In this document: in pieces, positions 7,246-57,274 of the stretch | Position numbering within the stretch: the first letter of the stretch is position 1 | Layout of the letters: each line of letters begins with the position of its first letter | Assembly: GCF_002563695.1 (NCBI RefSeq) | Contig: NZ_PDJI01000004.1 | Coordinates: 1,116,001 to 1,180,000 of the forward strand | Source of the DNA: Georgenia soli | GTDB taxonomy: Bacteria > Actinomycetota > Actinomycetes > Actinomycetales > Actinomycetaceae | Reading direction: 5' to 3' | DNA: 64,000 nucleotides | Notes under the pieces: generated by a model | What the model was told of the DNA's origin: nothing | The model's database searches: none | The model's input: only the letters and a program-made list of their open reading frames with translations | Program-made: the position numbers and the translations under genes

Positions 7246-8448
7246 ATGGCAGGTGAGGTGCGTCGTCGCATGGTCGTCGTCCACCCCTCGCCGGACGTGT
7301 ACGGCTCCGACCGACAGCTCCTCGAGAGCGTCGCGGGACTGGTGGCGGACGGCTGGGAGGTCGAGGTGGTCCTCCCCGCCGAGGGCCCCCTGTCTCCCCT
7401 CCTCCTCGAGCGCGGGGCGATCGTGCGCGTCCACGCCTTTCCGGTGCTGCGCAGGGCCCTGCTGCGCCCCCGGGCGCTGGCGCAGCTCGTCCTCCGCTCC
7501 CCCGTGACCGTCTGGCGCCTGCGTGGCCGGCTCCGCGCCTCCGGTGCGGCCGCCGTCTACGTCAACACCCTCACGATCCCGCTGTGGCTCGTCGCCGCCA
7601 GGCTCGCCGGGGTCCCGACGCTCTGCCACAGCCACGAGGCGGAGCGGCTGGCGCGGCCGGTCCAGCTCGCGCTGACGGCGCCGCTGCTGCTCGCCGACCG
7701 CGTCATCGCCAACAGCGAATCCACGCGGGCGGTCCTCACGGGCACGGTCCCCCGCCTCACCGCACGCACGGTGGTGGTCCACAACGGCGTGCCGGACCCC
7801 GGTCCGCCCGCGCCGCTGCGACGGCGGCGTCCCGAGGACGATCTCAGGCTCGTGCTCGTCAGCCGGCTCTCGCCCCGCAAGGGCGTGCACGTGGCCCTGG
7901 AGGCGCTGACGCTCCTGCGCGGGCAGGGACGCCGGGCGACCCTCGAGATCTGCGGCAGCACGTTCCCGGGGTACGAGTGGTACGAGCGCGAGCTCCGCGC
8001 CCGGGCCGACCGGCCCGACCTGGCGGGCGCGGTGACGTTCCACGGCTACGTCGCTGAGACCCGTGAGGTGCTGGACGCCGCCGACGTCGTTCTCGTGCCC
8101 TCGTTCGGCGAGTCCTTCGGCAACGTGGCGGTGGAGGGCATGCTCGCCGGCCGCCCGGTGGTCGCCTCGGACGTGCAGGGGCTCGCCGAGGTCCTCGACG
8201 ACGGCCGCACGGGCCTGCTCGTGGAGCCGGGGTCGGCCGAGGCGCTGGCCGCCGCTGTCGCGTCCCTCGCGGACGACGCCGACCTCGCCGCCCGGCTCGC
8301 CGCGGCCGCGCGGCAGGAGGCCACGTCACGGTTCGCGACCGCCGAGTACCGGGCCCGGGTCTCCACGCTCGCCCGCCTGGTCGCCCGGACCGGGGGACGC
8401 GGTCAGCGGCGCCCCGGCAGGCGGAGGTGGCGGAACCGCGGCGAGTAG
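7246..8448 (+). CDS. Glycosyltransferase family 4 protein
   Basis: A 400-residue GT-B enzyme that probably adds a sugar to an extracellular polysaccharide or glycolipid at the inner face of the membrane. The N-terminal Rossmann domain starts VVVHPSPDVYGSDRQLLESV, with a Gly-Ser-Asp-rich loop common in actinobacterial GT4 enzymes. The C-terminal donor domain carries LVSRLSPRKGVHVALEAL and the retaining GT4 E-x7-E motif in PSFGESFGNVAVEGMLAG. The ATG at 7246 has GGAGG five bases upstream. It is transcribed away from the ECF operon and overlaps the 3' end of the convergent GINT1-like gene by 46 bases. Confidence 0.9.
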   Translation: MAGEVRRRMVVVHPSPDVYGSDRQLLESVAGLVADGWEVEVVLPAEGPLSPLLLERGAIVRVHAFPVLRRALLRPRALAQLVLRSPVTVWRLRGRLRASGAAAVYVNTLTIPLWLVAARLAGVPTLCHSHEAERLARPVQLALTAPLLLADRVIANSESTRAVLTGTVPRLTARTVVVHNGVPDPGPPAPLRRRRPEDDLRLVLVSRLSPRKGVHVALEALTLLRGQGRRATLEICGSTFPGYEWYERELRARADRPDLAGAVTFHGYVAETREVLDAADVVLVPSFGESFGNVAVEGMLAGRPVVASDVQGLAEVLDDGRTGLLVEPGSAEALAAAVASLADDADLAARLAAAARQEATSRFATAEYRARVSTLARLVARTGGRGQRRPGRRRWRNRGE

Positions 8449-9944
8449 CCGGAACCGTCGATCACCTCGAGCCAGCCGGCGCGGTTGAGGGTGTGCAGCC
8501 GGCGCCCCGGCCACTGCGGTCCCGGCCCGAGCCTGGCGACGACGCGCTGTTCGAACGCCTCGTCGTCGAGCCGGGTGATCTCCGCCAGCGCGAGGGCGGC
8601 ACCGTACCCGCCGCGCCCGTCCTGGACGGGCCGGACGAGCCGGCCGCCGCGGGACACCACCCTCCCCGCCGGGCGGGCGGAGGAGATGTCGACGAGCACC
8701 GGGTTGGCCGCGTGCGGCCGCCACGGCCCCTGGAGCCGGTCGGCGGACCACAGGTGCAGCGCGTCGGAGTAGGAGCCACCGTCCCTTACGGTCGCGCTGA
8801 GCCACCAGCGGCCGCGGTGCCGGAAGGCGGTCGCGTCGCTGACCTCGCCCCCCTCGAGCAGCACCTCCTCCAGGGACCAGCCCTCCGGGAAGCCGCCCGC
8901 CCGGTACAGCTCGACCGTCCCGGCGGCCGAGGTCTCCGGGATCATCCAGAACTCGCCGTGCTCGTGCAGGACGAACGGGTAGGACAGGTGCACCGCGTGC
9001 TCCAGCACGGGCCGCGGGACGCCGGCCGGGCCGTCGTCGGTGAACTCCACGACCGAGACCACCCCGCGCCCGAGCCCGTGGTCGAAGTCCTCGACGAACA
9101 GGTACGTCCGGCCGTCGACGGCGAGCGGGAAGGGGTCGGCGTAGAAGTGCTGCCCGTCGTCCGGCAGCTCGTGCCAGCCCCCGGGCGGGTGCGCGCCCAG
9201 GTCGAGGACGTCCGGACCGTCCACCCGGCGCCAGCCCACGCGCCAGTGCGGCGCACGGTAGAGCTGGCGGTAGACGCGGTGCACGGCGGCGCGCAGCACC
9301 GACCTGGCCGCGTGCGACGTCGCCCGTCCGGGGCGGAGCTCCGGCGACTCTCCGTCGGCGGGCAGGTCCGGCGCGGCGGGGCGCCCGGCGCCGGGCCGCG
9401 GACCGTCGAGGGCCGCGAGGACGAGCTGCGTGCAACGCGCCAGGAGATCCTCGAAGGCGGCGACCACCACGCCCGGCGTCTCGCTGCCGGGACGTCCCGC
9501 GGCGAGCGTGCGGCCCGCCGCGAGGTCGACCACCCGCACGACCGGGGGCCGGCCCGCCAGCAGCGCGGCCAGCGCGGCCTCCTCCCCGGCTCCGCCGTCG
9601 AACGTCAGGTGCCACGTGCGGACACCGTCGTCCCGAGCGTCCGGGCCGTCCCGCGCGTCGCCGTCCGCACCGCCGGCGAGGTCCAGCACGACGTCGGCAC
9701 GCGAGTCCCCGTCGAGGTAGGGACGCAGGGCGCCCCCGTCCACCGGTGCGGCGCGCCCGACCGGGAGCCCGTGCAGCCTCCGCTCGAGGAGGAGGAGCCG
9801 CTCGACCTCCGCCGACGGCGGCCCGGACGGACCGTCGCCCCACCGGACGGTGACCTCCAGGTCGGGTCGGCGCGCCAGCTCGGCGACCAGCTCGTGGTGC
9901 CAGCGGCGCAGCGCGCGCGGGTCGAGCCGGACCTGGAGTCGCAC
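8403..9944 (-). CDS. GINT1-like glucosamine transferase/beta-propeller family protein
   Basis: A 513-residue protein resembling bacterial members of the family named after plant glucosamine inositolphosphorylceramide transferase 1. Residues 1-190 form an alpha/beta domain with VVLDLAGG and RTWHLTFDGGAGEE, reminiscent of formyltransferase-like folds. From about residue 245 comes a five-bladed-propeller-like region with repeated DPF/DSF and W motifs: HFYADPFPLAVDGRTYLFVE, YPFVLHEHGEFWMIPET and DATAFRHRGRWWLSAT. Substrate is unknown; the context suggests polysaccharide or glycolipid modification. The start chosen is the GTG at 9944, with a purine-rich AGGTGA upstream; GTG at 9977 is an alternative. 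Confidence 0.75.
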   Translation of the reverse strand: MRLQVRLDPRALRRWHHELVAELARRPDLEVTVRWGDGPSGPPSAEVERLLLLERRLHGLPVGRAAPVDGGALRPYLDGDSRADVVLDLAGGADGDARDGPDARDDGVRTWHLTFDGGAGEEAALAALLAGRPPVVRVVDLAAGRTLAAGRPGSETPGVVVAAFEDLLARCTQLVLAALDGPRPGAGRPAAPDLPADGESPELRPGRATSHAARSVLRAAVHRVYRQLYRAPHWRVGWRRVDGPDVLDLGAHPPGGWHELPDDGQHFYADPFPLAVDGRTYLFVEDFDHGLGRGVVSVVEFTDDGPAGVPRPVLEHAVHLSYPFVLHEHGEFWMIPETSAAGTVELYRAGGFPEGWSLEEVLLEGGEVSDATAFRHRGRWWLSATVRDGGSYSDALHLWSADRLQGPWRPHAANPVLVDISSARPAGRVVSRGGRLVRPVQDGRGGYGAALALAEITRLDDEAFEQRVVARLGPGPQWPGRRLHTLNRAGWLEVIDGSGYSPRFRHLRLPGRR

Positions 9945-40221: not shown

Positions 40222-40509
40222 TCAGGCACGCTGCTGCTCGACGAACGCGGCGAGGGTGCCGACGGTCTCGAAGATCTCGCCGCTGAAGTCTTCGTCGTCG
40301 AGCTCGAAGCCGAAGCGGTCCTCGAGGCTGGTCACGAGCGAGAGCACCGCCAGGGAGTCCAGCTCCGGCATGCTCCCGAAGAGCGGGGTGGTGGCGTCGA
40401 TGGAGGCCGCGCGGTCCTCGATGCCGAGGGTCTCGACGAGCACGGCGACGACGCCGTCGAGGGTGTCGTCGCTGACGGCGGTGGTGGCGCGCTGGTCGTC
40501 GGTGGTCAT
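40222..40509 (-). CDS. Acyl carrier protein (phosphopantetheine-binding)
   Basis: A 95-residue carrier protein. The phosphopantetheine attachment serine is Ser52 in MPELDSLAVLSLV, and DRFGFELDDEDFSGEIFETV is the typical acidic helix region. The ATG at 40509 follows a perfect GAAGGAG. It is the last gene of a four-gene unit with a GNAT protein, an AMP-forming acyl ligase and a PLP-dependent decarboxylase, and most likely carries the aminoacyl or acyl group those enzymes make. It is not a fatty-acid-synthesis ACP by context. Confidence 0.93.
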   Translation of the reverse strand: MTTDDQRATTAVSDDTLDGVVAVLVETLGIEDRAASIDATTPLFGSMPELDSLAVLSLVTSLEDRFGFELDDEDFSGEIFETVGTLAAFVEQQRA

Positions 40510-40529
40510 GGCGTTCTCCTTCTGCGGGG

Positions 40530-41771
40530 TCATACGAGCACCTCTGCCGGGTGGGGGTGGCCGAGGAAGGCGGTCGGGCTGGCGGTCAGGCCGTACGCGC
40601 CTGCCTGGAAGATCGCGACGAGGTCGCCGACCTCCGCGGGTGGCAGGAGCACCTTGTCCCCGAGCAGGTCCAGCGGCGTGCACAGGCAGCCGACCACGGT
40701 GACCTCCTCCCCCGGCGCCTCGTCCATGCGGTTGGCGACGGCGAGGGGGTAGTTGCGGCGGATCACCTGCCCGAAGTTCCCCGACGCGGCGAGCTGGTGG
40801 TGCAGGCCGCCGTCGACGACGAGGTAGGTCCGTCCACGCGAGACCTTCCGGTCCACGACGCGGGTGACGTACACCCCGGCCTCACCGACGAGGTAGCGGC
40901 CGAGCTCGAGAACGACGCGCGCGTCCGGCAGGTTCGGCTCCAGGCGCTCGGTCATCAGGTCGGCGAGGTTCGCCCCGACGGCGGGCAGGTCGAGCGGGGA
41001 GTCCTTGTCGAAGTACGGGATGCCGAACCCCCCGCCGAGGTTGACGTAGCGCACGGGCCAGGGTGTGCGCCCGGCCAGGGAGAGGACGAGGTCGACGGTG
41101 CGGCGCTGCGCCTCGGCGAGGATTTCGGCACTGAGGTTCTGGGAGCCGGCGAAGACGTGGAAGCCGAGCAGCTCGACGTCCGCGGCCGCGAGCTCGGCGA
41201 GGAGCGCGGGCACCTGCTCGACGTCGACGCCGAACTGCTGGGGCCCGCCGCCCATGCGCATGCCCGAGCCCTTGATCTGGAAGTCGGGGTTCACCCGGAT
41301 CGCCGCCCGTGGCCGGACGCCGAGCCGCTCCCCCGCCCGGACCACCCGGCGCGCCTCGGTGGCGGACTCCATCTCGAGGGTGACGCCCGCCGCGACGGCC
41401 TGGAGGATCTCCGCCTCCGTCTTGCCCGGGCCGGCGAAGCTCACGCGCGACGGCGGCATCGGTGTGTCCAGGGCGGTGCCCATCTCGAGCGCGGACGCGA
41501 CGTCGAGCGAGTCCACCAGCGTGGCCAGGTGCTGGACGACGGCGGGCATCGGGTTGGCCTTGACGGCGTAGCTGAGCTGGACCTGCTGCGGCAGGTTCTC
41601 GCGCAGCAGCTGGACCCGCCGGGTGATGAGGGCGCGGTCGTAGGCGAAGAACGGGGTGGCGCCGACCCGCTGGGCGAGCCGCTCGACGGGGACGCCGCCG
41701 ACGGTGAGCTGCCCGCCGGCGGTGCCGAACGCGGCGACGGTCTCGCGATAGGTGACGGTGGGGGCGCTCAT
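40530..41771 (-). CDS. PLP-dependent decarboxylase (DapDC/ODC fold, type III)
   Basis: A 413-residue alanine-racemase-fold decarboxylase of the LysA/ornithine decarboxylase class. The PLP lysine is Lys71 in YAVKANPMPAVV. Other landmarks are RVSFAGPGKTEAEI, the block FGVDVEQVPALLAEL, LGFHVFAGSQNL, YVNLGGGFGIPYF, LELGRYLVGEAGVYVTRVVD and the catalytic cysteine region VTVVGCLCTPLDLLGD. Decarboxylases of this type occur beside acyl-CoA ligase and ACP genes in exosortase A-associated polysaccharide clusters. Start and ligase stop overlap (ATGA). The substrate, probably an amino acid or its carrier-bound form, is unknown. Confidence 0.92.
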   Translation of the reverse strand: MSAPTVTYRETVAAFGTAGGQLTVGGVPVERLAQRVGATPFFAYDRALITRRVQLLRENLPQQVQLSYAVKANPMPAVVQHLATLVDSLDVASALEMGTALDTPMPPSRVSFAGPGKTEAEILQAVAAGVTLEMESATEARRVVRAGERLGVRPRAAIRVNPDFQIKGSGMRMGGGPQQFGVDVEQVPALLAELAAADVELLGFHVFAGSQNLSAEILAEAQRRTVDLVLSLAGRTPWPVRYVNLGGGFGIPYFDKDSPLDLPAVGANLADLMTERLEPNLPDARVVLELGRYLVGEAGVYVTRVVDRKVSRGRTYLVVDGGLHHQLAASGNFGQVIRRNYPLAVANRMDEAPGEEVTVVGCLCTPLDLLGDKVLLPPAEVGDLVAIFQAGAYGLTASPTAFLGHPHPAEVLV

Positions 41772-43348
41772 GCCAGCTCCTCGCGCAGCAGGTTGCGGTC
41801 GAACTTGCCGTTGGGCGACCGGGGGATCTCGGGCCGGACGAGCACCTGCGACGGGACCATGTACAGCGGCAGCCGCCGCCGCAGCACCTCGAGGAGCGAC
41901 GCCTCCGTGAGCCCGTTCGAGCCCGTGGGGGTGGCGACCAGGACGATCTTCTGGCCCAGCCGCGCGTCCTCGACCCCGAGGGCGACGGCGTCGCGGACCA
42001 TGCCGGTGGCGTAGGCGACCTCCTCCACCTCGGCGGGGCTGACCCGGTAGCCGCTCGTCTTGATCATCTCGTCGCGCCGCCCGACGAAGTAGAGGAAGCC
42101 CTCCTCGTCGGCCACGACCGTGTCCCCCGACCAGACGGCGACCTCGCGGGAGCCCGGCGGGCGCCCCGGGGCGGGCCGGAACCGCTCGGCGGTGCGCTCG
42201 GGGTCGCCCCAGTAGCCCTGGGCGACGAGCGCGCCGCGATGCACGAGCTCGCCCTCCTCCCCCGGCGCGCACCGGGTGCCGTCGGGCCGGACCACGAGGA
42301 TCTCCGCGTTGGGGATCGCCCGGCCGATGGAGTCGGGGCGACGGTCCACCTCGCCGGGGTCGAGGTAGGTGGACCGGAACGCCTCGGTGAGGCCGTACAT
42401 GAGGAACGGCCGGGCGCCCGGGAAGATGCTCCGGAGCCGGTCGAGGGTCACCCGCGGCATCCGGCCGCCCGTGTTGGCGAAGTACCGGAGGTGACGCGTG
42501 GCCTCCTCGGGCCAGTCGTGCTCGGCGAGCTGGATCCACAGCGGCGGCACGCACGTCAGGCCCGTGACGCGGTGGCGCGCGCACGCCCGGACGACGTCGC
42601 GGGGCAGCAGGTAGTTGACGAGCACGACGTGCGCCCCGACGGCGAAGGCCGTGGTGAGCTGGCTGAAGCCGGCGTCGAAGCTCAGCGGCAGGGCGGAGAG
42701 GATCACGTCGCCGGAGTCGTTGCCGAGATAGTGGCTGACGCTCTCGGCGCCGACGAGGAGGTTGCGGTGGCTCAGCACCACCCCCTTGGGCCGCCCGGTG
42801 CTGCCGGAGGTGTAGAGGATCGCGGCGACGTCGTGATCGATCGGCTGGGGCGCGGACGCGGGAGCCACCCGGCCGAGCAGGTCGCTCCACCGGTGGACCT
42901 CGTAGGCCGCCCCCGGCCCGCCGTCGTGCGAGACGTCGGCTCCCCCGTCGGCGCCCCCCACCAGGACGACGTGCTCCAGCGCCGCGCAGCCGGCGAGCTC
43001 GGCCTCGAGCTGCGCGAGGCGCTCGGGCGAGGTGACCAGCACGCGAACGTCGCAGTCGGCGAGGATGTAGGCCACCTGCGGCGCACGCAGGAGCGGGTTG
43101 ACCGGCACGAAGGCACCGCCGGCTGCCGAGGCGCCGAAGATCGCCGCGACCGTCTCGACGCGCTTGTCGAGGTAGACCGCGACGCGGTCCTCCCGCCCGA
43201 GCCCCAGGGCCAGGAGCCCGCCGGCGACCGCGCGCACCTGCTGCCACAGGTCGCCGTAGCTGACGGTGGTGTCCTTGAAGGACACCGCCGGGGCCTCCGC
43301 CCGGCGGCCGGCCTGCTCCCGGAGCAGGTCGTGCAGGCTCGTCCTCAT
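41768..43348 (-). CDS. AMP-forming acyl-CoA/acyl-ACP ligase
   Basis: A 526-residue adenylate-forming enzyme. The P-loop is AILYTSGSTGRPKGVVLSH. The A5 region reads LMYGLTEAFRSTYL, A7 WSGDTVVADEEGFLYFVGR, and A8 RRDEMIKTSGYRVSPAEVEE. The catalytic lysine is in SPNGKFDRNLL. It activates a carboxylate and passes it to the neighbouring carrier protein. It resembles ligases labelled exosortase A system-associated. The ATG at 43348 has GGGAG upstream. The gene lies 26 bases after the GNAT gene and overlaps the decarboxylase start, forming one unit. Confidence 0.92.
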   Translation of the reverse strand: MRTSLHDLLREQAGRRAEAPAVSFKDTTVSYGDLWQQVRAVAGGLLALGLGREDRVAVYLDKRVETVAAIFGASAAGGAFVPVNPLLRAPQVAYILADCDVRVLVTSPERLAQLEAELAGCAALEHVVLVGGADGGADVSHDGGPGAAYEVHRWSDLLGRVAPASAPQPIDHDVAAILYTSGSTGRPKGVVLSHRNLLVGAESVSHYLGNDSGDVILSALPLSFDAGFSQLTTAFAVGAHVVLVNYLLPRDVVRACARHRVTGLTCVPPLWIQLAEHDWPEEATRHLRYFANTGGRMPRVTLDRLRSIFPGARPFLMYGLTEAFRSTYLDPGEVDRRPDSIGRAIPNAEILVVRPDGTRCAPGEEGELVHRGALVAQGYWGDPERTAERFRPAPGRPPGSREVAVWSGDTVVADEEGFLYFVGRRDEMIKTSGYRVSPAEVEEVAYATGMVRDAVALGVEDARLGQKIVLVATPTGSNGLTEASLLEVLRRRLPLYMVPSQVLVRPEIPRSPNGKFDRNLLREELA

Positions 43349-45609: not shown

Positions 45610-46665
45610 ATGGGTGCTCACGACGGCTCGGCCGGAAGCACAACGGACGTCGCCTCGCAGGCGGGCGGGGCCGCTCCGCCGCCGGAGACCTCCATGCCGG
45701 CCCCGCCGCCGCGGACCTCCATGGCCACCGAGCCGGGGTTCGCCGAGCGGGTCCGCATGCGGGCGGTCGGCATGTACCGGAACGCGACCACCGCGCGCCT
45801 CCGGCAGCCGTCGTTCACGTACAAGAGCCGGGAGGCCGCGCGGGTCCGGCGCCTCATGCGCGAGCTCGGCGTGAAGGACCCCGCGTTCGAGGTGGACGGC
45901 AAGGACGATCTGCACGCCTGGGCCCGAAGCTTCGGCGTGCGCACCCCGCGCCTGCTCGCCGTCCACGAGCACGTGCGGGAGATCGACTGGTCCGCGCTCC
46001 CCGACCGGTTCGTCCTCAAGCCGACCCGCGGCGCGTCCAGCGCCGGCGTCCTTCTGCTCACCCGCCGGGGAGGCGATTGGCTCGACCTCGTCACGGGGCG
46101 CGACCTGACCGAGCAGGGCGTCGTCACGGAGCTGGAGTCCCTCGCCGCACGCAAGGAGGTGTCCGCCGCGGTCCTCCTGGAGGAGCTGATCGAGGATCCC
46201 CGCTTCCCGGGCGCCCAGCCCCCGGACTACAAGGTCTCGACGTTCTTCGGGCGCATCGGCTTCATCGAGGCGAAGTCGCACGGGTACGCGGACGGCAGGC
46301 CGGTGGCCCGGTGGCGCGTGTTCGGCCCGGACTGGACCGACCTGGGGAACGGTTTCAACGACGAGCAGGACCACACCATCCCTCCGCCGCTCCACGCCGA
46401 GGAGCTCCTCGAGGTGGCCGCGCGCGTCAGCGCGGCCATCCCGCGCCCGTACCTGCGCGTGGACATGCTCGACAGCGCGGACGGCCCGGTGCTCGGGGAG
46501 ATCACGCCCGAGCCGGGCAACGATCCTGTCGCCCGCTCCGGGCTGGACCGTCCTCTCGGAGAGCTCTGGGAGGACGCCGAGGCCCGGCTGAAGGTCAGGG
46601 CCGCGCGCGCCGGGTTCCTCTCGCCGGCGCACGAGCCGCTGCCCGAGGGACTGGTGGGTCGCTGA
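45610..46665 (+). CDS. TupA-like ATP-grasp protein
   Basis: A 351-residue ATP-grasp enzyme of the TupA (teichuronopeptide biosynthesis) type, a family thought to ligate amino acids or peptides to a uronic acid polymer. Landmarks are SFTYKSREAARVRRLMRELG, WARSFGVRTPRLLAVHEH, the ATP-binding DRFVLKPTRGASSAGVLLL, VLLEELIEDP, YKVSTFFGRIGFIEAKSH and the metal-binding end YLRVDMLDSADGPVLGEITP. Residues 1-45 are Pro/Ala-rich. The ATG follows GAAGGAG. It is the enzyme most likely to amidate ManNAcA or another uronate of the local polysaccharide. Confidence 0.85.
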   Translation: MGAHDGSAGSTTDVASQAGGAAPPPETSMPAPPPRTSMATEPGFAERVRMRAVGMYRNATTARLRQPSFTYKSREAARVRRLMRELGVKDPAFEVDGKDDLHAWARSFGVRTPRLLAVHEHVREIDWSALPDRFVLKPTRGASSAGVLLLTRRGGDWLDLVTGRDLTEQGVVTELESLAARKEVSAAVLLEELIEDPRFPGAQPPDYKVSTFFGRIGFIEAKSHGYADGRPVARWRVFGPDWTDLGNGFNDEQDHTIPPPLHAEELLEVAARVSAAIPRPYLRVDMLDSADGPVLGEITPEPGNDPVARSGLDRPLGELWEDAEARLKVRAARAGFLSPAHEPLPEGLVGR

Positions 46666-46806: not shown

Positions 46807-47820
46807 TCACCGGCCGGTGGCGAACCGCCCGAGGTGGACCGCCGTCCGCAGTGCCCGTACGTAGCTGAAGGCGGCGGCGTAGCGCACCTTGTCGGCCGCC
46901 CGTGCAGGAGCCGGCCGCGACCCGTCCCACACCCGCAACCAGATCGTCACGCCGCCGCGGGCCTCGTTCACGGCGCGGCCGAGCGCGTGCCGGCGCCCCT
47001 GGTGGGCGTTGCGGTCCGCGATGCCGTTGGCCACCCGCAGCGTCTTGCGCCCCAGCTCCTGCCAGGTGCTGCGGGCCGGGTGGTTCACCACGGTGTCGTC
47101 GTCGTAGACCAGGCGGGCGCCGGAACGGCCCAGCCGGGTGCCGAAGTCGAGGTCGCCCCCGGACTGCAGGCTCGCGTCGAACGGGCCGACCCGGGCGAGG
47201 GTGGCGGCGTCGACGAAGAGGTTCGCCGTGGCCGCGAACGACCACTCCTCCACGTACTTGCGCTGCTGGAACTCGTTGTACGCCTCGAAGTGCTCGGGCC
47301 CGGACCGCGGCCGCGGTCCGTGGTCGAAGAAGATCCGGATGGCGCCGCCCACGGCGTCGGGCCGAGGGTCCGCCCGCAGCGCCGCGACACCCCGGCTGAG
47401 CCAGTCGGGCGCGGGCAGGCAGTCGCTGTCCGTGAAGGCGACGACGGAGCCGCGCACCAGCGGCAGCGCCGTGTTCCGTGCCGCGTACGACCCGCGGCGC
47501 TCCTCGTGGAGCAGCTGGAATCGTTCGTCGTCGGGCATGGCCGCGGACTGGTCCTGGTCGGAGTTGTTGTCCACGACGAGCACCTCGTACCGGTCGGCCG
47601 GGTAGTCCTGGGCCGCGAGCGCGTCCAGGCACAGCCGCAGCCGGTCGACGTCGTTGTACACGGGGATCACCACCGACACGAACGGCCGGTCGTGGCGGGG
47701 CTCGTGCTCCGTCCCGACGGCGGGCGCGGGGCTCTCCGTGCCGACCGCGGTCGCAGGGCTCTGCGTCCCGACGGCGGTCGCGGGGCTCTGCGTCCCGACC
47801 GCGCCTGCGTGCTCGTTCAT
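46807..47820 (-). CDS. Glycosyltransferase family 2 protein
   Basis: A 337-residue GT-A enzyme. The nucleotide-binding start is FVSVVIPVYNDVDRLRLCLD, the metal-binding DxD is in VVAFTDSDCLPAPDWL, and the acceptor region has QSGGDLDFGTRLGRSG. No membrane helix is obvious. Residues 8-34 are three imperfect copies of a nine-residue unit (VGTQSPATA) encoded by a 27-bp tandem repeat. The ATG overlaps the stop of the multidomain gene (ATGA), so the pair is co-translated. Donor and acceptor are unknown. Confidence 0.9.
   Translation of the reverse strand: MNEHAGAVGTQSPATAVGTQSPATAVGTESPAPAVGTEHEPRHDRPFVSVVIPVYNDVDRLRLCLDALAAQDYPADRYEVLVVDNNSDQDQSAAMPDDERFQLLHEERRGSYAARNTALPLVRGSVVAFTDSDCLPAPDWLSRGVAALRADPRPDAVGGAIRIFFDHGPRPRSGPEHFEAYNEFQQRKYVEEWSFAATANLFVDAATLARVGPFDASLQSGGDLDFGTRLGRSGARLVYDDDTVVNHPARSTWQELGRKTLRVANGIADRNAHQGRRHALGRAVNEARGGVTIWLRVWDGSRPAPARAADKVRYAAAFSYVRALRTAVHLGRFATGR
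47707..47810 (-). repeat. 27-bp tandem repeat in the 5' end of a glycosyltransferase gene
   Basis: Three full units (47707-47733, 47734-47760, 47761-47787) and a partial fourth encode the N-terminal VGTQSPATA repeats. Confidence 0.88.
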
Positions 47821-50252
47821 GCCTTGATCCCTTCGGTGCGGACCCCCGGACCTGCGATGTCGAGCTGCTGCTGCCTCGTCGTCCCCGCCCGCACCAGCAC
47901 GAGCGCGCGCCGGCGCGCCCACTGCCGCTGGTGGCGCCCGAGGAACCGACGGGTCCGGCGCGCCAGGCCGAGTCCCTCGTCGACGGCGGAGCGCGCGACC
48001 CGCCGCGGCGTGCCCGCGACCCAGCGCAGGCGGTACAGCGTCCGCCTGCCGTGCTGCAGCCACACCGGGTCCTCGAGCAGCGCGTCGAGGCTCAGCCCCA
48101 CGAAGGGGTACCACCGCGCGGCGTACGAGATCTCCCCGTAAGGCACGTCTCCGTCGAAGTCCTCGGGCACCCCGGCGAAGGCGTAGATGGACGGGAACTC
48201 GGGCGGCTCGCCGTCGTAGCGGTGGTAGAACTCCAGGTCCACCACCTTCAGGCCGTGCTCGGGGTCGAGGAGGAAGTTCTGGGGCTTGGCGTCGATGAGG
48301 TCGGCCCCGCGGGCGTGGACCTGACGCAGGACCTCGACCATCTGCCGGGCGTGCCGCAGCGGCACCAGGGAGCCGTCGGGACGGTCCGGGATCCGCAGGA
48401 CGTTGCGGTAGTACGGCAGGGAGAACCAGTTCTCGCCGGTGGCGAGCAGGCGGGGCACGGCGGGCACGTGGGCCCCGAGCTCGCGCAGGGCCCGGACCTC
48501 CCGCTCGAGGTGACGCACAGCGTGGGCGCCGAAGGTCTTGCGGACCTCCTGCCCCCCGCCGTTGTCGACCAGCTCCACCTTCGCCCGCCTGCCACGGCTG
48601 AGCACCGACACCACGGGCACCGTCGTCCGGTAGGCGTCCTTGCGCCCGCGCACGACGGCGGCCAGCTCCTCGAGCCGGTGCGGCAGCGCGGCCGCGAGGT
48701 ACTCCCAGGCCTCGTCCTCGTCGTCGGAGGAGTGCACCGGGTTGAACGCCTCCCGCTCGCCGACAGCCGCGAGGACATGGTCGCGCAGCACGTTCTTGGC
48801 CAGCAGGACGTCGGAGTTCGTCAGCCTCGGGTACCGGGCAGCCACCACCGGGTCGGGCGGGCGGGGCCCGTAGTGCAGGGCGACGACGGCGCGCACCGGC
48901 TCGCCGCCGCTGACCGCGAACGGGCCGCGCCCCCAGTTCCCGCCGCGCACCGCGCGGGTGCACCGGGCGCGGGCGGCGGGGTCGAGCGCGTCCGCGGCCA
49001 GCACCTCGAACTCCAGGCCGGCCAGCACCGAGAGCACGTCGGCCGTCCCCAGCACCGACTCGGCGCGCTCGCGCACGAAGAAGACGGCCAGCTCGGGGAG
49101 CTCTGCCTCCGCGGCGTTCTCGTGGCGGCCGTGATCGTGGCCGCCGGTCTCGTGGGCGCCGTGCTCGTGGCTGCCGATCTCCTCCCCGCCGCTCTCCGGC
49201 GAGGCGCTCCCGTGCCGGAGACGACGGCGCAGCCACGCGTTGTCCTCCGCCAGCCGGCGCAGGGTGTCGGGCGAGGGTTTCCAGCCCACGCGCTGCAGGT
49301 GGGCGTCGACCCCCTCGAGCGTGAGGTCGAGGTCCACGTGCTGCGCAGCGGCCACCCGGCCCAGCGCCGAGACGTAGTCGTGCTCCGGGTCCGCCGCGGT
49401 CGCGGTGAGCCTGGACGGCAGTCCCGAGCGCTCCCCCTTGTGGTACGCGGCGTGGTACGCGAGCGAGGCGAGGTGGTCCCCGGGGGCGGGCACCCGGTAG
49501 CCGCTGGCGTGGACGGTCGCCCGGTCGAGCAGGCCGCGGGCGAGGTCGGGCGGGTAGTAGGCGACGCCGCGGAAGTCCGAGCCCGGCAGGCCGGACTCGC
49601 TGTACAGGTCGACCGGGATGGTGCCCGGCTCGCGGGCGAGGACGGCGCGGAAGGTCTCGAGGTCGTCGTCGGCCACGAGCATGTCCAGGTCCTCACCGGG
49701 GGCGAGGTCGGGCAGGGCCTCGAACCAGCGCAGCACGGCGTAGTGCACGCCGGCGTCGTCCAGGAGCCGGGGCAGGCCCGCCACGCCGACGACCTCGGAG
49801 AGGTAGCACCGGGTCCGGGGCCGCGGCGGCGTCGTCAGCTCGACGACGTCGAAGTCGGCGCCACCGCAGCGGTGCCGGCCGAGGTCGGTGGCGTCACCGG
49901 TCAGCCGGGCGGCGAGCCGGGCGGCGCGCAGCTCCGCCCGCGCACCGGGGGTGACCTCGACCGCGACGTACCGGGCGGACAGGTCGCGCACCGCCCAGGC
50001 GAGCCGGACGTACGGCTCGCGCAGGACCAGCACGTCGGTGGAGCAGCGCTGCGCGACCTCGGGGCCCGCCAGCGGGTGCAGGCGGTCCTCCCGGCCCGGC
50101 GACCGCCGTCGGACGTCCTCGAGGGAGCCGGGCTCGACGAGGCCGAGGTAGCGGCGGAACCCGGCCGCGGCGAGCGCCTCGGCCAGGCGGGGCGAGGACG
50201 CGCCCAGCTCGAGGACGCGGGTGTCCTCGGAGAACAGCGCCGTCAGCTCCAT
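47817..50252 (-). CDS. 811-residue multidomain protein: Rossmann, nucleotidyltransferase-like, NDPK-like and kinase-like domains
   Basis: I do not know a described protein of this build. Residues 1-148 resemble a Rossmann methyltransferase (TRVLELGASSPRLAEALAAA). Residues 150-345 look like a nucleotidyltransferase-type domain with GEDLDMLVADDDL (Asp188, Asp190). A His-rich linker follows at 361-377. Residues 386-525 resemble nucleoside diphosphate kinase; the segment NPVHSSDDEDEA aligns with its NxxHGSDS active site (His507). Residues 550-760 resemble an aminoglycoside/Kdo-kinase-type fold: Lys572 in EVRKTF, HARGADLIDAKPQNFLLD (Asp654, Asn659) and VVDLEF (Asp672). It is probably a sugar- or polymer-modifying phosphotransferase. 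The ATG appears leaderless, and the stop overlaps the GT2 start. Confidence 0.7.
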   Translation of the reverse strand: MELTALFSEDTRVLELGASSPRLAEALAAAGFRRYLGLVEPGSLEDVRRRSPGREDRLHPLAGPEVAQRCSTDVLVLREPYVRLAWAVRDLSARYVAVEVTPGARAELRAARLAARLTGDATDLGRHRCGGADFDVVELTTPPRPRTRCYLSEVVGVAGLPRLLDDAGVHYAVLRWFEALPDLAPGEDLDMLVADDDLETFRAVLAREPGTIPVDLYSESGLPGSDFRGVAYYPPDLARGLLDRATVHASGYRVPAPGDHLASLAYHAAYHKGERSGLPSRLTATAADPEHDYVSALGRVAAAQHVDLDLTLEGVDAHLQRVGWKPSPDTLRRLAEDNAWLRRRLRHGSASPESGGEEIGSHEHGAHETGGHDHGRHENAAEAELPELAVFFVRERAESVLGTADVLSVLAGLEFEVLAADALDPAARARCTRAVRGGNWGRGPFAVSGGEPVRAVVALHYGPRPPDPVVAARYPRLTNSDVLLAKNVLRDHVLAAVGEREAFNPVHSSDDEDEAWEYLAAALPHRLEELAAVVRGRKDAYRTTVPVVSVLSRGRRAKVELVDNGGGQEVRKTFGAHAVRHLEREVRALRELGAHVPAVPRLLATGENWFSLPYYRNVLRIPDRPDGSLVPLRHARQMVEVLRQVHARGADLIDAKPQNFLLDPEHGLKVVDLEFYHRYDGEPPEFPSIYAFAGVPEDFDGDVPYGEISYAARWYPFVGLSLDALLEDPVWLQHGRRTLYRLRWVAGTPRRVARSAVDEGLGLARRTRRFLGRHQRQWARRRALVLVRAGTTRQQQLDIAGPGVRTEGIKA

Positions 50253-50469: not shown

Positions 50470-52284
50470 GTGGCCGAACCATCGTCGGACCCGAGGGACC
50501 AGGAGTCGGCGAGGCGCGCCAACCCGCTGGAGGTGGCCCGCAAGACGTGGGGGGCGTGGCTGCGGCTCTCCCCGTTCTTCCGCAGCTCCCGGCTCGCCAT
50601 CGTGGTGCTCGCCGGCCTCTCCCTCGTGGCCGGGCTGGTCGAGTCCGGCCTCATCGCGCTCATCGCCACCGTCGCCGCCTCGTTGGCCACCGGCTCGCGG
50701 GACGTCCAGGCGGACCTGGGCCCGATCGCCCTGGACGCGCCCCTGCCCACCGTGCTCACCGTCGGCGTGGCGATGGCCGTGGTACGGGGCTGCCTGTCCA
50801 TCCTGCTCGCCTACATCCCCGCCCGGGTGGGGGCGCAGGCGATGGCCGACCTGCGGCGCAAGCTGTTCGACGCGTTCGTCGGCGCGGCGTGGGAGATCAA
50901 GGCGTCGGAGCGGGACGGCCAGTTCCAGTCGCTCATGAACGCGCACATCTCGATCGTGAGCCAGGCGATCATCACGCTCGGCAACGGCGTCTCGATCTTC
51001 GTCACCTTCGTGACGCTGGTGGTCTCGGCCTTCCTGCTGAACCTGCCGGCAGCCGTCGCCCTGGCGGTGGCGTCGCTCCTGCTCTTCGCGGGGCTGCGGC
51101 CGCTGGCGCGGCGGCTGCGGGACCAGGCCCGGAAGCTGAGCGCGGAGAACATCGAGTACTCCAAGGGCGTCCAGGAGGTCGTCCTGATGGCGGAGGAGAC
51201 GCAGGTGTTCGGCGCCTCCCCCACGTACCGTGAGACCTTCTACCGGCTCGTGGACCGGGTGCGGGCGCCGCTGCTACGCAGCCGGTTCCTGGCGGAGGCC
51301 GTGCCGGCGCTCTTCCAGAGCGTCGCGCTGCTGCTCCTGGTGCTGGCCCTGATCGTCATCTCGCTGATGGACGTGGGCAACCTGGCCTCGCTCGGCGCCG
51401 TGGTGCTGATCCTCATCCGGGCGCTGTCCTTCGGGCAGCAGGTGCAGTCCGTGGCGACGAGCATGGACGAGAAGATCCCCTTCATGGAGCGGCTGGCGGA
51501 CGCGCTGGGCCAGTACTCCGGCCACCCGCAGCAGGACGGCGACCAGGACCTGCCTCCTGTGCGCCGGCTGAGCCTGGTCTCCGTCGACTTCGCCTACCCC
51601 ACCGGCCCGCAGGTGCTCCACGACGTCACCTTCACCGTGGAGCGCGGCGAGACGATCGGGATCGCCGGGCCCTCGGGCTCCGGGAAGTCCTCGGTGGTGC
51701 AGATCCTGCTGCGGCTGCGGGACCCCAGCGACGGCGCCCTGCTCGTCAACGACGTCGACGCCCGCAGCTTCCGGCGCGACCAGTGGCAGCGGCGCATCGC
51801 GTACGTGCCGCAGACCGCGCAACTGGTGTGGGGCACGGTCGCGGACAACATCCGGTTCTACCGCCCCGAGCTGACCGACGCCCAGATCGTCGACGCCGCC
51901 CGCAAGGCCAACCTCCACGACGAGGTGATGTCGTGGCCCGAGGGGTACGACACGGTCGTCGGTCAGCGCGCCGCCGCCGTCTCCGGCGGTCAGCGGCAGC
52001 GGATCTGCCTGGCGCGCGCGCTGGCCGGCGACCCCGAGGTCCTCATCCTTGACGAGGCGACGAGTGCGCTGGACGTCCGCTCCGAGAACCTCGTCCACCA
52101 GTCGCTCGAGGCGCTGAAGGGCCGGATCACCCTGTTCATGGTGAGCCACCGGATCTCCGCCCTCGCCACGTGCGACCGGGTCATGGTCATCGAGAACGGG
52201 CGGCTCCAGGCGTTCGCGCCGCCGGCGGACCTGGCCGCCACGAACACCTTCTACCGCGACATCACGCGGGTGCCGGGGGTGTAG
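50470..52284 (+). CDS. ABC transporter, fused permease and ATPase
   Basis: A 604-residue half-transporter of the type I exporter class, possibly a lipid-linked oligosaccharide flippase of the PglK/MsbA kind, given its setting. The membrane domain has five or six helices (LAIVVLAGLSLVAGLVESGL onward). The ATPase has the A-loop VDFAYPTGPQVL, Walker A GPSGSGKSSVVQI, Q-loop YVPQTAQLVWGTV, signature VSGGQRQRICLARAL, Walker B VLILDEATSALD and H-loop MVSHRIS. The start is the GTG at 50470 with GGAGG upstream. It diverges from the 811-residue protein gene. The 217-base gap between them holds both promoters. Confidence 0.9.
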   Translation: MAEPSSDPRDQESARRANPLEVARKTWGAWLRLSPFFRSSRLAIVVLAGLSLVAGLVESGLIALIATVAASLATGSRDVQADLGPIALDAPLPTVLTVGVAMAVVRGCLSILLAYIPARVGAQAMADLRRKLFDAFVGAAWEIKASERDGQFQSLMNAHISIVSQAIITLGNGVSIFVTFVTLVVSAFLLNLPAAVALAVASLLLFAGLRPLARRLRDQARKLSAENIEYSKGVQEVVLMAEETQVFGASPTYRETFYRLVDRVRAPLLRSRFLAEAVPALFQSVALLLLVLALIVISLMDVGNLASLGAVVLILIRALSFGQQVQSVATSMDEKIPFMERLADALGQYSGHPQQDGDQDLPPVRRLSLVSVDFAYPTGPQVLHDVTFTVERGETIGIAGPSGSGKSSVVQILLRLRDPSDGALLVNDVDARSFRRDQWQRRIAYVPQTAQLVWGTVADNIRFYRPELTDAQIVDAARKANLHDEVMSWPEGYDTVVGQRAAAVSGGQRQRICLARALAGDPEVLILDEATSALDVRSENLVHQSLEALKGRITLFMVSHRISALATCDRVMVIENGRLQAFAPPADLAATNTFYRDITRVPGV

Positions 52285-54683: not shown

Positions 54684-55838
54684 ATGGATCTGTTCAGCAT
54701 CCTCGGCGCCTCACTGCGACGCTGGTACGTCACGGTCCTCGTCGTCGCGGTCACGGGTCTGCTGGCGTTCCAGTCGTACAAGGCCGTCGAGCCCGTGTAC
54801 ACGGGGATGGTCTCGCTGGTGGTCCTGCCCAGCCTCGAGCAGACCCTCGCGGCCTCCGCGGACCCCGAGGACGAGCTCGCCCAGGACAAGAACCCCTACG
54901 CCGGGCAGGGCGGGTCACAGTTCGCGGTCGCGGTCCTCAAGCGCAACATCAACAGCACGGCCTTCCGGGAGCGGCTGGACCTGGAGAAGAACGAGACGAT
55001 CCTGGCCGAGACGGCGAACTCCCAGCCGATCCTGGAGATCACGGCCTCCGCCAACACGCCGGCGGACGTCCGCAGACTGCTCGATCTCGTCACGGCCGAG
55101 GCCTCCGTGGTTCTCAACGAGTTCCAGGAGACCGCCGGCGCCCCCGTGGAGACGCGCTACCGGACGGCGCCCGCCGTGCCGCCGGGCACCGTCGAGGACG
55201 TCACGCCCAGCCGCCTGCGTGTCGCCGGCGCGATCGCCGTGATGGGCTGCGCCGTGGCCGCCGGGCTGGCGACCACGCTCGACCTGCTGCTCGCCCGGCG
55301 GAAGGCGCGCCGCCAGGGGGCCGCGGCGCCCGCAGCGCCTGACGACGCCGGCGGCTCCGCCGTCGTCGCGGAGGCCGCCGCACCGGCACCGGCCGCCACC
55401 CGGGCTGCGCGACGCGCCGCTCCGGCCGGTGCCGCGCCGACGAGCCCGCCCGACGGCGCCGCAGCGGTCACGCGCACCACGCGGAGCGCCCCGGCCAACG
55501 GCACCACCCGGCCCATCGTCGTCGCCGGCCGCGCGGCACGGCGAGGTCAGGGCGACAGCGGCACGGCCGCGGTCCGGGACGAGCCGGTGCGCGTGCGCTC
55601 CGGCGCCGACCCCTCCGCCGTCGCCCGGCCGACGGCCGCCACGCCCGCGACGCCCGGCACCCCACTGACGCCCGCGACACCGGGCGAGCCGGCCGCGCAC
55701 GCGTCGGGCAACGGGCGCACCGACAGGCAGGGACGGGCCGTGCCCGTGGCCGGTGACCGACGCTGGGCGTCCGGCGCCGCACCGACCAACGGAGCACGCG
55801 GCGTCCCCGAGGAAGCGGCCCTCGTCCCGGAGCCCTGA
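54684..55838 (+). CDS. Wzz-like chain-length determinant protein
   Basis: A 384-residue membrane protein of the Wzz/capsular chain-length regulator type. Helix 1 covers about 14-33 (YVTVLVVAVTGLLAFQSY), the extracytoplasmic part about 35-170 (EPVYTGMVSLVVLP, then ADVRRLLDLVTAEASVVLNE), and helix 2 about 180-200 (RVAGAIAVMGCAVAAGLATT). The remaining 180 residues are a cytoplasmic low-complexity Ala/Pro/Thr/Arg tail without kinase motifs. The ATG follows CAGGAGAG. It heads a tight operon with the polymerase, a glycosyltransferase and a deacetylase; its stop overlaps the next start by one base. Confidence 0.85.
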   Translation: MDLFSILGASLRRWYVTVLVVAVTGLLAFQSYKAVEPVYTGMVSLVVLPSLEQTLAASADPEDELAQDKNPYAGQGGSQFAVAVLKRNINSTAFRERLDLEKNETILAETANSQPILEITASANTPADVRRLLDLVTAEASVVLNEFQETAGAPVETRYRTAPAVPPGTVEDVTPSRLRVAGAIAVMGCAVAAGLATTLDLLLARRKARRQGAAAPAAPDDAGGSAVVAEAAAPAPAATRAARRAAPAGAAPTSPPDGAAAVTRTTRSAPANGTTRPIVVAGRAARRGQGDSGTAAVRDEPVRVRSGADPSAVARPTAATPATPGTPLTPATPGEPAAHASGNGRTDRQGRAVPVAGDRRWASGAAPTNGARGVPEEAALVPEP

Positions 55839-57274
55839 TGGGCGCCCTGGCACCGACGCTCCCGGGACGGCGTCCGCCCGGCCCGTGGGCCGCGGTCCTG
55901 GCGCTGCCGCTGGTCGCTTTCGTCATCCCGTCGAGCCTCGTGATCGCCGGCCCGCTGCACTCGAACGGCTGGCCCGGGCGGCTCCTGGTCTTCTGGATCG
56001 CGGGGGCGTTCGCGCTGGGCTGGATCGTCCGGCAGCGACCGCGGCGTACGTCGCCGGCCGAGGTCGGCTGCTGGCTGCTGCTGCTCGGGCTGACGTTCTC
56101 CCTCGCCGCGGCAGGTCTGCGCACGCTGAGCGACGTCGAGGCGGCCGGGGTCCTGCGTTACGCGCTCGTGCTCTTCCCCCTCGTGGTGCTGGCGATCGGC
56201 GTCGCCTCCAGCGCCTCGCCGCGGCTGTGCGACGCGCTGCTGCTGGGCATCTTCGTGGGCGCGGTCTTCAGCTCGTTCATCGCGGTCGCCCAGTTCGTCG
56301 TGCCGTTCAGCTGGGAGGAGCTGCTGCAGCTCCCGGGTCTGGACGCGCGCGGCAACCACGACGAGCTGACGCGCGGTGACTTCTTCCGGGTCCAGGGCAC
56401 CACCGTGCACCCGATCGAGTTCGGCGTGATCGCCGGGGCCGCGGTGCCGCTCGGCCTCCACCTCGCCCGGTACGTTCCCTCCAGGCTGGGCCGCCAGCTC
56501 GCCACCCTCAGCACCCTCGGGGTGATCGGGTCCATCCCCCTGTCGATCTCACGTTCCGGCGTCCTCGTGCTGATGCTCGCGGTGGCGGCCTACGCGGTCG
56601 TGCTCAGCCCGCGGCAGCGGGCCACCGCCCTCGTCCTCGGCATGGCGGGGCTGCTGCTGTTCCGTGCCGCGATCCCGGGGCTCCTGGGCACGGTGCTCGG
56701 CGCCTTCACGGACGCGGAGACCGACACGAGCATCAGCTCGCGGACCGACGGCATCGCCGCGGTGACGGGCATGATCGAGAAACAGCCGATCCTCGGCTAC
56801 GGGCTCGGCACGTTCCGCCCCGAGGAGTACATCTTTCTCGACAACCAGTACCTCATGTCGTTGGTCGAGGGCGGGCTGGTGCTGGTGGCCGGCATCCTCG
56901 CGTGGGTCTTCCTCGCCCTCGCCAGCGCCCGTGGCGCCGCCCGGCGTGGCGACGCGGTGGCGGCCTCACGCGCCCAGGCGGTCTTCGCCGGGATCCTGGC
57001 GATCGCTGCCTCCGGCGCCTTCTTCGACCTGTTCAGCTTCGCCCAGGTCACCGTGATGCTCTTCCTCCTTGTCGGGGTGGCGGGTGCGCTCTGGCACGAC
57101 GGCGTCGCGACCGGCAGGCCCCTGCCCTCGCCGATCGCCCGCTTCCGTGCCGGGGCGGCGGGCCTCGGGAAGCCGGTGGTCGCGGCCGGCGTCGCGACGC
57201 CCGCGGCCGTCACGCCCGGCGCCGCGGGAGCGGCCGGCGAGGTCAGTGCGCTCGGCGCAGGAAGGACGACGTGA
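55838..57274 (+). CDS. Wzy-like polymerase / O-antigen ligase family protein
   Basis: A 478-residue polytopic protein of the O-antigen ligase/polymerase family, the second in the window. About ten to twelve helices are seen. The extracytoplasmic loop region shows TVHPIEFGVIAGAAVPLGLH, then SIPLSISRSGVLVLMLAVAA and SRTDGIAAVTGMIEKQPILG followed by YGLGTF, matching the family pattern SRSG ... R ... GxG. Start and upstream stop share one base (TGATG). The C-terminus is Ala/Gly-rich. It probably polymerises units made by the adjoining glycosyltransferases. Confidence 0.88.
   Translation: MGALAPTLPGRRPPGPWAAVLALPLVAFVIPSSLVIAGPLHSNGWPGRLLVFWIAGAFALGWIVRQRPRRTSPAEVGCWLLLLGLTFSLAAAGLRTLSDVEAAGVLRYALVLFPLVVLAIGVASSASPRLCDALLLGIFVGAVFSSFIAVAQFVVPFSWEELLQLPGLDARGNHDELTRGDFFRVQGTTVHPIEFGVIAGAAVPLGLHLARYVPSRLGRQLATLSTLGVIGSIPLSISRSGVLVLMLAVAAYAVVLSPRQRATALVLGMAGLLLFRAAIPGLLGTVLGAFTDAETDTSISSRTDGIAAVTGMIEKQPILGYGLGTFRPEEYIFLDNQYLMSLVEGGLVLVAGILAWVFLALASARGAARRGDAVAASRAQAVFAGILAIAASGAFFDLFSFAQVTVMLFLLVGVAGALWHDGVATGRPLPSPIARFRAGAAGLGKPVVAAGVATPAAVTPGAAGAAGEVSALGAGRTT

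What the first reader, a model, noticed from the sequence alone, without database searches (positions are those of the whole stretch)
47817..50252. Four-domain 811-residue protein possibly joining methyltransferase, nucleotidyltransferase, NDPK and kinase folds
I know no described protein with this domain order. The NDPK-like region keeps the NxxH-S-S-D site (His507). The C-terminal domain keeps Lys572, Asp654, Asn659 and Asp672 of kinase-like phosphotransferases. The nucleotidyltransferase-like region keeps GEDLDMLV. A His-rich linker joins the halves. It is co-translated with a GT2 and sits between a TupA-like ATP-grasp and an ABC exporter, so it may phosphorylate or nucleotidylate a polysaccharide intermediate.
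Basis: inference. Interest (0 to 1): 0.76.

Follow-up and report, generated by a model that had tools for sequence, protein, structure and literature searches.

The report
Four-part enzyme beside sugar-polymer exporter
A bacterial gene in a surface-sugar cluster encodes a member of an apparently undescribed enzyme family that joins a worn-out methyltransferase, a nucleotidyltransferase, an altered NDP kinase and a protein-kinase-like domain, and may put a phosphate-based group on a sugar chain before export.

The parts
47817..50252 (-). 811-aa four-domain protein (P0002)
   Evidence: 72 homologues, 320 proteins (120 listed)
49818..50252 (-). residues 1-145, class I methyltransferase-like fold with eroded SAM motif
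   Evidence: hhalign to Methyltransf_23 P 1.3e-7; strand-helix order ending in a two-strand hairpin; motif counts
49218..49817 (-). residues 146-345, nucleotidyltransferase (NTP_transf_5-like); D188, D190, D215, H267, H271
   Evidence: hhalign to NTP_transf_5 P 2.5e-7 over 150 columns; counts
49101..49217 (-). residues 346-384, low-confidence His-rich linker, not conserved
   Evidence: pLDDT under 50 at 351-379
48618..49100 (-). residues 385-545, NDPK-like domain, N504-x-x-H507-S-S-D510
48933..48947 (-). RGGNW loop (436-440) where NDPKs have the base-clamp helix
   Evidence: R436, G437, G438, W440 in 251 of 251, N439 in 250 of 251; no helix between 439 and 451 in the models
48048..48617 (-). 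residues 546-735, protein-kinase-like domain; K572, E585, D654, N659, D672
47856..48065 (-). residues 730-799, long basic C-terminal helix (18 Arg/Lys, 3 acidic in 70)
46807..47820 (-). GT2 glycosyltransferase, ATGA overlap
45694..46665 (+). TupA-like ATP-grasp
50470..52284 (+). ABCB-type ABC exporter, divergent neighbour
54684..55838 (+). membrane protein, Wzz-like by eye only (no Pfam hit), conserved in several of the clusters
55838..57274 (+). Wzy_C polymerase/ligase

Best explanation
A glycan-modifying phospho-enzyme that works at the inner face of the membrane next to a flippase. Shown: the four folds, the conserved active-site residues, the cluster setting. Inferred: the kinase domain (optional in the family) puts a phosphate on a sugar of the lipid-linked oligosaccharide; the nucleotidyltransferase then transfers a nucleotidyl (or, as reported for the lasso-peptide enzyme PsmN, a sugar) group to that phosphate; the NDPK-like domain carries a phosphate on His507 and either adds it to the same substrate or recharges the nucleotide. 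The methyltransferase-like domain is a leftover binding or scaffold domain. The basic C-terminal helix would hold the protein at the membrane.
For: Folds: kinase, NDPK, nucleotidyltransferase and methyltransferase-like. In one search the three intended hhalign pairs gave P 2.5e-7, 5.9e-6 and 1.3e-7; the other 12 of 15 pairs gave 0.024 to 0.59. Catalytic residues kept. Setting: an exporter or flippase gene adjoins in 8 of 9 loci: divergent ABC exporter in the window, L012, L014, L015, L017, L018; Wzx-type flippase in L019, L026. In L025 Wzm/Wzt lie 4.6 kb away and are not counted as adjoining; L013 begins at a contig end and is left out of the 9. A GT2-type gene is adjacent in the window, L012, L014 (Pfam) and in L013, L015, L017, L018, L025 (by BLAST to window GT2 genes, with positions). 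Precedent for kinase and nucleotidyltransferase acting in turn: pseudomycoidin PsmK/PsmN (passages of reviews); for phosphate at a glycan end: WbdD (passages).
Against: No substrate, product or activity is known. 107 of 251 members lack the kinase segment (some are cut by contig ends), so it cannot be needed for a common reaction unless another gene supplies it. Planctomycete neighbourhoods could not be fetched. The nucleotidyltransferase part has LRW where NTP_transf_5 has KG (alignment) and gave only P 0.024 against a set of 8 mostly sub-cut-off PF14907 hits and 0.11 against LicD. The own genome lacks the MTase-APH companion found with some relatives.
Confidence: 0.4

Rival explanations
1. 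Donor maker: kinase makes X-phosphate from a free sugar or alditol, the nucleotidyltransferase makes NDP-X, and the NDPK-like domain refills the NTP. The product feeds the neighbouring GT2.
For: Same chemistry order; a cytidylyltransferase-like and a CDP-alcohol transferase gene lie 18 and 21 kb away in the window; nucleotidyltransferase profile match.
Against: The region already has its own cytidylyltransferase-like gene; 107 of 251 members lack the kinase segment; the NDPK-like site lacks the base-clamp helix on the models (clamp described).
Confidence: 0.17
2. NTP recycling: the NDPK-like domain is a real NDP kinase that regenerates UTP/CTP for local glycosyltransferases, and the other domains localise it.
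For: Catalytic His site intact.
Against: The Lys12 position is Arg in 251 of 251 and the Glu129 position Tyr in 247 of 251; clamp helix absent on the models; the genome has a canonical NDPK.
Confidence: 0.13
3. Chain terminator of the WbdD kind: caps the finished polymer and sets its length.
For: Methyltransferase-like plus kinase plus long C-terminal helix, in an export cluster.
Against: SAM motif eroded; the window's exporter is ABCB type with a Wzy_C gene, not Wzm/Wzt; the WbdD passages describe no nucleotidyltransferase or NDPK domain.
Confidence: 0.14
4. Regulator: a phospho-His/kinase switch that controls the flippase or glycosyltransferases rather than modifying glycan.
For: Protein-kinase fold, divergent ABC exporter neighbour.
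Against: Conserved nucleotidyltransferase Asp set suggests catalysis; kinase often absent.
Confidence: 0.1

Closest known systems
WbdD (E. coli O9a) and K. pneumoniae O7 ORF6 terminators
   Same: Methyltransferase fold and kinase fold in one protein, long C-terminal helical part, polysaccharide export cluster (passages read)
   Different: Here the SAM motif is eroded, two further domains lie between, and the cluster has a Wzy_C gene and a flippase-type exporter
NDP kinase (PF00334, NME)
   Same: Fold, N-x-x-H-S-S-D site, Arg at the Arg105 position (alignment)
   Different: No base-clamp helix on the models, invariant RGGNW loop, Lys12 to Arg, Glu129 to Tyr, fused to a nucleotidyltransferase
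NTP_transf_5 (PF14907)
   Same: Profile match over 150 columns, D-x-D
   Different: LRW in place of the family's KG motif; the query is below the Pfam cut-off
PsmK/PsmN of pseudomycoidin
   Same: Kinase, then a nucleotidyltransferase-type enzyme working on the phosphate (passages of two reviews)
   Different: Separate proteins, peptide substrate; the PsmN sequence was not compared here

Membership tests
NDP kinase (PF00334) | NDPK fold | tested here: met
NDP kinase (PF00334) | catalytic His in N-x-x-H-G/S-S-D | tested here: met
   His507 in 249 of 251, both misses out of frame; aligned to the NDPK His
NDP kinase (PF00334) | Lys12 and Glu129 | tested here: not met
   Arg394 in 251 of 251; Tyr518 in 247 of 251; roles from passages; the Glu129 match is by spacing from the His
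NDP kinase (PF00334) | helix 60-70 carrying Phe60 of the base clamp | tested here: not met
   No helix between 439 and 451 in two models; on predicted structure only
NDP kinase (PF00334) | Pfam gathering score | tested here: not met
   1 of 30 members scanned matches at E up to 1, E 0.25
NTP_transf_5 (PF14907) | profile similarity | tested here: met
   hhalign P 2.5e-7, 150 columns, against 24 sequences; LicD P 0.11; an earlier, smaller set gave P 0.0036
NTP_transf_5 (PF14907) | Pfam gathering score | tested here: not met
   P0002 13.6 bits vs cut-off 31.2; 14 of 30 members match at E up to 1, best 0.0036, their bit scores not shown
NTP_transf_5 (PF14907) | fold by structure comparison | tested here: inconclusive
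   NDPK rows filled the PDB lists; BFVD gave a LicD protein at E 0.048, prob 0.60
class I SAM methyltransferase | profile similarity | tested here: met
   P 1.3e-7, prob 94, 75 columns
class I SAM methyltransferase | Gly-rich SAM motif and acidic residue after strand 2 | tested here: not met
   In 64 Micrococcales-rich members D/E15 (60) and G17 (57) are kept, but positions 19 and 21 are mostly T/R/P/S and A/P, and position 40 varies
protein-kinase-like fold | fold and Lys/Glu/Asp/Asn/Asp set | tested here: met
WbdD-type terminator | working methyltransferase | tested here: not met
   SAM motif eroded; activity itself not testable
WbdD-type terminator | coiled-coil ruler | tested here: inconclusive
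   one predicted helix 730-799, pLDDT 65-85 over much of it and lower at the end; oligomer not modelled
WbdD-type terminator | caps the non-reducing end | not testable with these tools
   needs biochemistry

The most novel reading that the evidence does not exclude
A new enzyme family whose core is a nucleotidyltransferase locked to an NDPK-derived phospho-histidine domain that has given up the nucleotide base clamp for an RGGNW loop and now moves phosphate onto a lipid-linked glycan or its phosphate; kinase and pseudo-methyltransferase parts are add-ons.
Probability: 0.3. Interest if true: 0.8.

Novelty: new variant of a known kind. Interest (0 to 1): 0.6.

Why it matters
It would be an NDPK fold taken out of nucleotide metabolism and built into glycan assembly, and a route to phosphate-bearing surface polymers in Actinobacteria and Planctomycetes. 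The conserved residues make each domain testable by single mutations.

Tried and rejected
Whole-model fold search: the kinase filled the list, so other domains were untested there. A single-domain structure search of the nucleotidyltransferase or methyltransferase part was not possible (two structure jobs, used on 1-811 and 146-545). Profiles of the nucleotidyltransferase and methyltransferase parts found nothing convincing in the PDB by sequence: 4 unrelated hits, best E 0.35, and 2 designed TIM barrels, best E 0.0017, taken as chance. The NDPK profile found 23 PDB hits at E up to 10: 12 named NDPKs and TXNDC6 (best, E 0.033; that it has NDPK domains is recalled), the other 10 unrelated. A first hhalign with 13 against 5 sequences gave only P 0.0036 for the nucleotidyltransferase; the larger sets gave 2.5e-7. 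LicD membership was considered and not supported (P 0.11). The idea that the protein derives from the co-clustered MTase-APH protein was tested: no BLASTP similarity. The NDPK-like domain was sought apart from the nucleotidyltransferase (141 hits, 120 listed): among the 251 listed proteins only P0223 (longest contig 1760 bases) and P0236 (named partial, 43% of the nucleotidyltransferase segment) lack most of it; hits not listed were not seen.

Rows dropped before counts or profiles: A3 used 14, A4 13 and A5 10 of the 16 members chosen (out-of-frame, short or poorly aligning segments left out); A6 left out P0069-P0071; of 28 NDPK loci 5 without HGSD in frame were dropped; of PF14907 loci, 28 were given and 4 dropped as flank-cut, while L032, L134 and L142-L146 were not given; L084 and L095 were not given to the methyltransferase set.

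Full report
Observation. The ORF at 47817-50252 lies on the minus strand and reads 811 aa without a stop. Neither Pfam nor NCBIfam names it: Pfam gives only sub-threshold Pkinase and NTP_transf_5 hits, NCBIfam weak hits to the kinase part of LanL/LanKC synthetases. The window genome is of the same genus as G001, whose contig of 236714 bases has the length of the Georgenia sp. EYE_87 contig found, so the organism is probably a Georgenia (inference).

Family. A database search found 73 proteins including the query, those with names called hypothetical, phosphotransferase or protein kinase domain-containing, from Georgenia, Cellulomonas, Pengzhenrongella, Oerskovia, Cellulosimicrobium, Actinotalea and one Longimicrobiales MAG. 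A search from a divergent member found 320 proteins (120 listed), four of them named, from Pirellula, Pirellulales, Lacipirellulaceae and Thermoguttaceae. In whole genomes the protein is sporadic: 6 of 99 relatives, 5 of 396 genomes of the order, 1 of 24 in the family of G212. These counts include the own genome or G212 itself, and G074 is in both of the first two. A genome-contig scan gave 3 loci, among them Janibacter limosus.

Architecture. Among the 251 listed proteins, scored by coverage of four segments, 134 have all four, 92 lack only the kinase, 8 lack only the methyltransferase-like part, 15 have the nucleotidyltransferase and NDPK-like parts only, 2 have NDPK plus kinase only. Some short forms are cut by contig ends. 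Of 48 kinase-less forms of 513-544 aa, 47 end in AA after the NDPK-like domain, which suggests a natural end (inference). So the nucleotidyltransferase-NDPK pair is the core.

Active sites. Fifteen core residues (D188, D190, D215, H267, H271, R394, R436, G437, G438, W440, K486, R490, N504, H507, D510) are all present in 235 of 238 members with a near-full core; the exceptions are P0028, P0070 and P0240. In NDPKs, helices 44-52 and 60-70 form the nucleotide cleft, Phe60 and Val112 clamp the base, Lys12 and Asn115 hold the ribose, Glu129 holds the catalytic His (passages). Here the models show the first helix (425-438) and then the loop RGGNWGRGP leading into the strand at 452, with no second helix. 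Lys12 is replaced by Arg394, and the position 11 after the His, Glu129, by Tyr518. This argues for a changed substrate (inference). The nucleotidyltransferase keeps its three presumed metal Asp (roles recalled from the superfamily). The methyltransferase-like domain keeps the topology and, in Micrococcales, the first acidic and Gly positions, but not the rest of the Gly-rich loop or the acidic residue after strand 2; Gly17 is kept in 65 of 118 of the mostly planctomycete members. SAM use is unlikely (inference).

Neighbourhood. Window: ATGA-coupled GT2, TupA-like ATP-grasp, divergent ABC exporter, Wzy_C gene, further GT2s and a deacetylase; further away a UDP-GlcNAc 2-epimerase, a WecG/TagA glycosyltransferase, a UDP-sugar dehydrogenase, a cytidylyltransferase-like and a CDP-alcohol transferase gene. 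No PF02397 initiating transferase lies in the window; the nearest in the genome is about 167 kb from its edge. A 59-67% similar ABC exporter stands divergently next to the homologue in L012, L014, L015, L017, L018. In L019 and L026 the homologue is followed by a Wzx-type flippase. In L025 it is next to GT2-type genes with Wzm/Wzt 4.6 kb off. So different export machines, one kind of place. Five of these loci are one genus, so they are not independent.

Companion. In L014, L018 and L025 the cluster holds a second protein with kinase-like (APH or TCAD9-type) and, by Pfam in two of the three, methyltransferase domains, 44-50% identical in the pairs compared, and not similar to the finding. 6 of 99 relatives match it at E up to 0.001; 3 are full-length strong matches (G001, G007, G008), all of which carry the finding's homologue, and 3 are weak matches to its methyltransferase part only. 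It is absent from the own genome, G002 and G074, which also carry the homologue, and in G008 it lies on another contig. The three are one genus, so this is weak evidence of linkage.

Mechanism and limits. The best reading and rivals are given above; what is shown is fold, conservation and context, all else is inference. The precedent of PsmK/PsmN is from reviews, read as passages; the original paper was not held. WbdD and O7 papers were read as passages.

Literature. No described protein with this domain set appeared in what I saw of the held library: 20 of 85 papers listed; none; 1 listed, not read; none; none; none. These were listings only and do not prove that none is in print.

Noticed in passing
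L014:16210-18054, L018:12025-13911, L025:7059-8579: Second, unrelated protein with methyltransferase and APH-type kinase regions in clusters of three relatives; SAM motif looks intact by eye in L014 and L025. Strong matches in 3 of 99 relatives, all with the finding's homologue.
   Followed up: partly
window 40222-43348: Run of genes for a PP-binding carrier protein, a PLP decarboxylase of the ornithine/DAP type and an AMP-binding ligase, beside a protein without Pfam hit; looks like activation and loading of an amino acid or acyl group.
   Followed up: no
window 8403-9944: Protein with a Pfam match to GINT1_N, glucosamine inositolphosphorylceramide transferase N-terminal region (E 1.7e-30), odd in a bacterial polysaccharide region.
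   Followed up: no
window 46807-47820: The N-terminus of the GT2 carries near-copies of AVGTxSPAx before the catalytic domain.
   Followed up: no
P0158: 1107-aa homologue with a long extra region after the kinase; by eye it could be a second gene read through.
   Followed up: no
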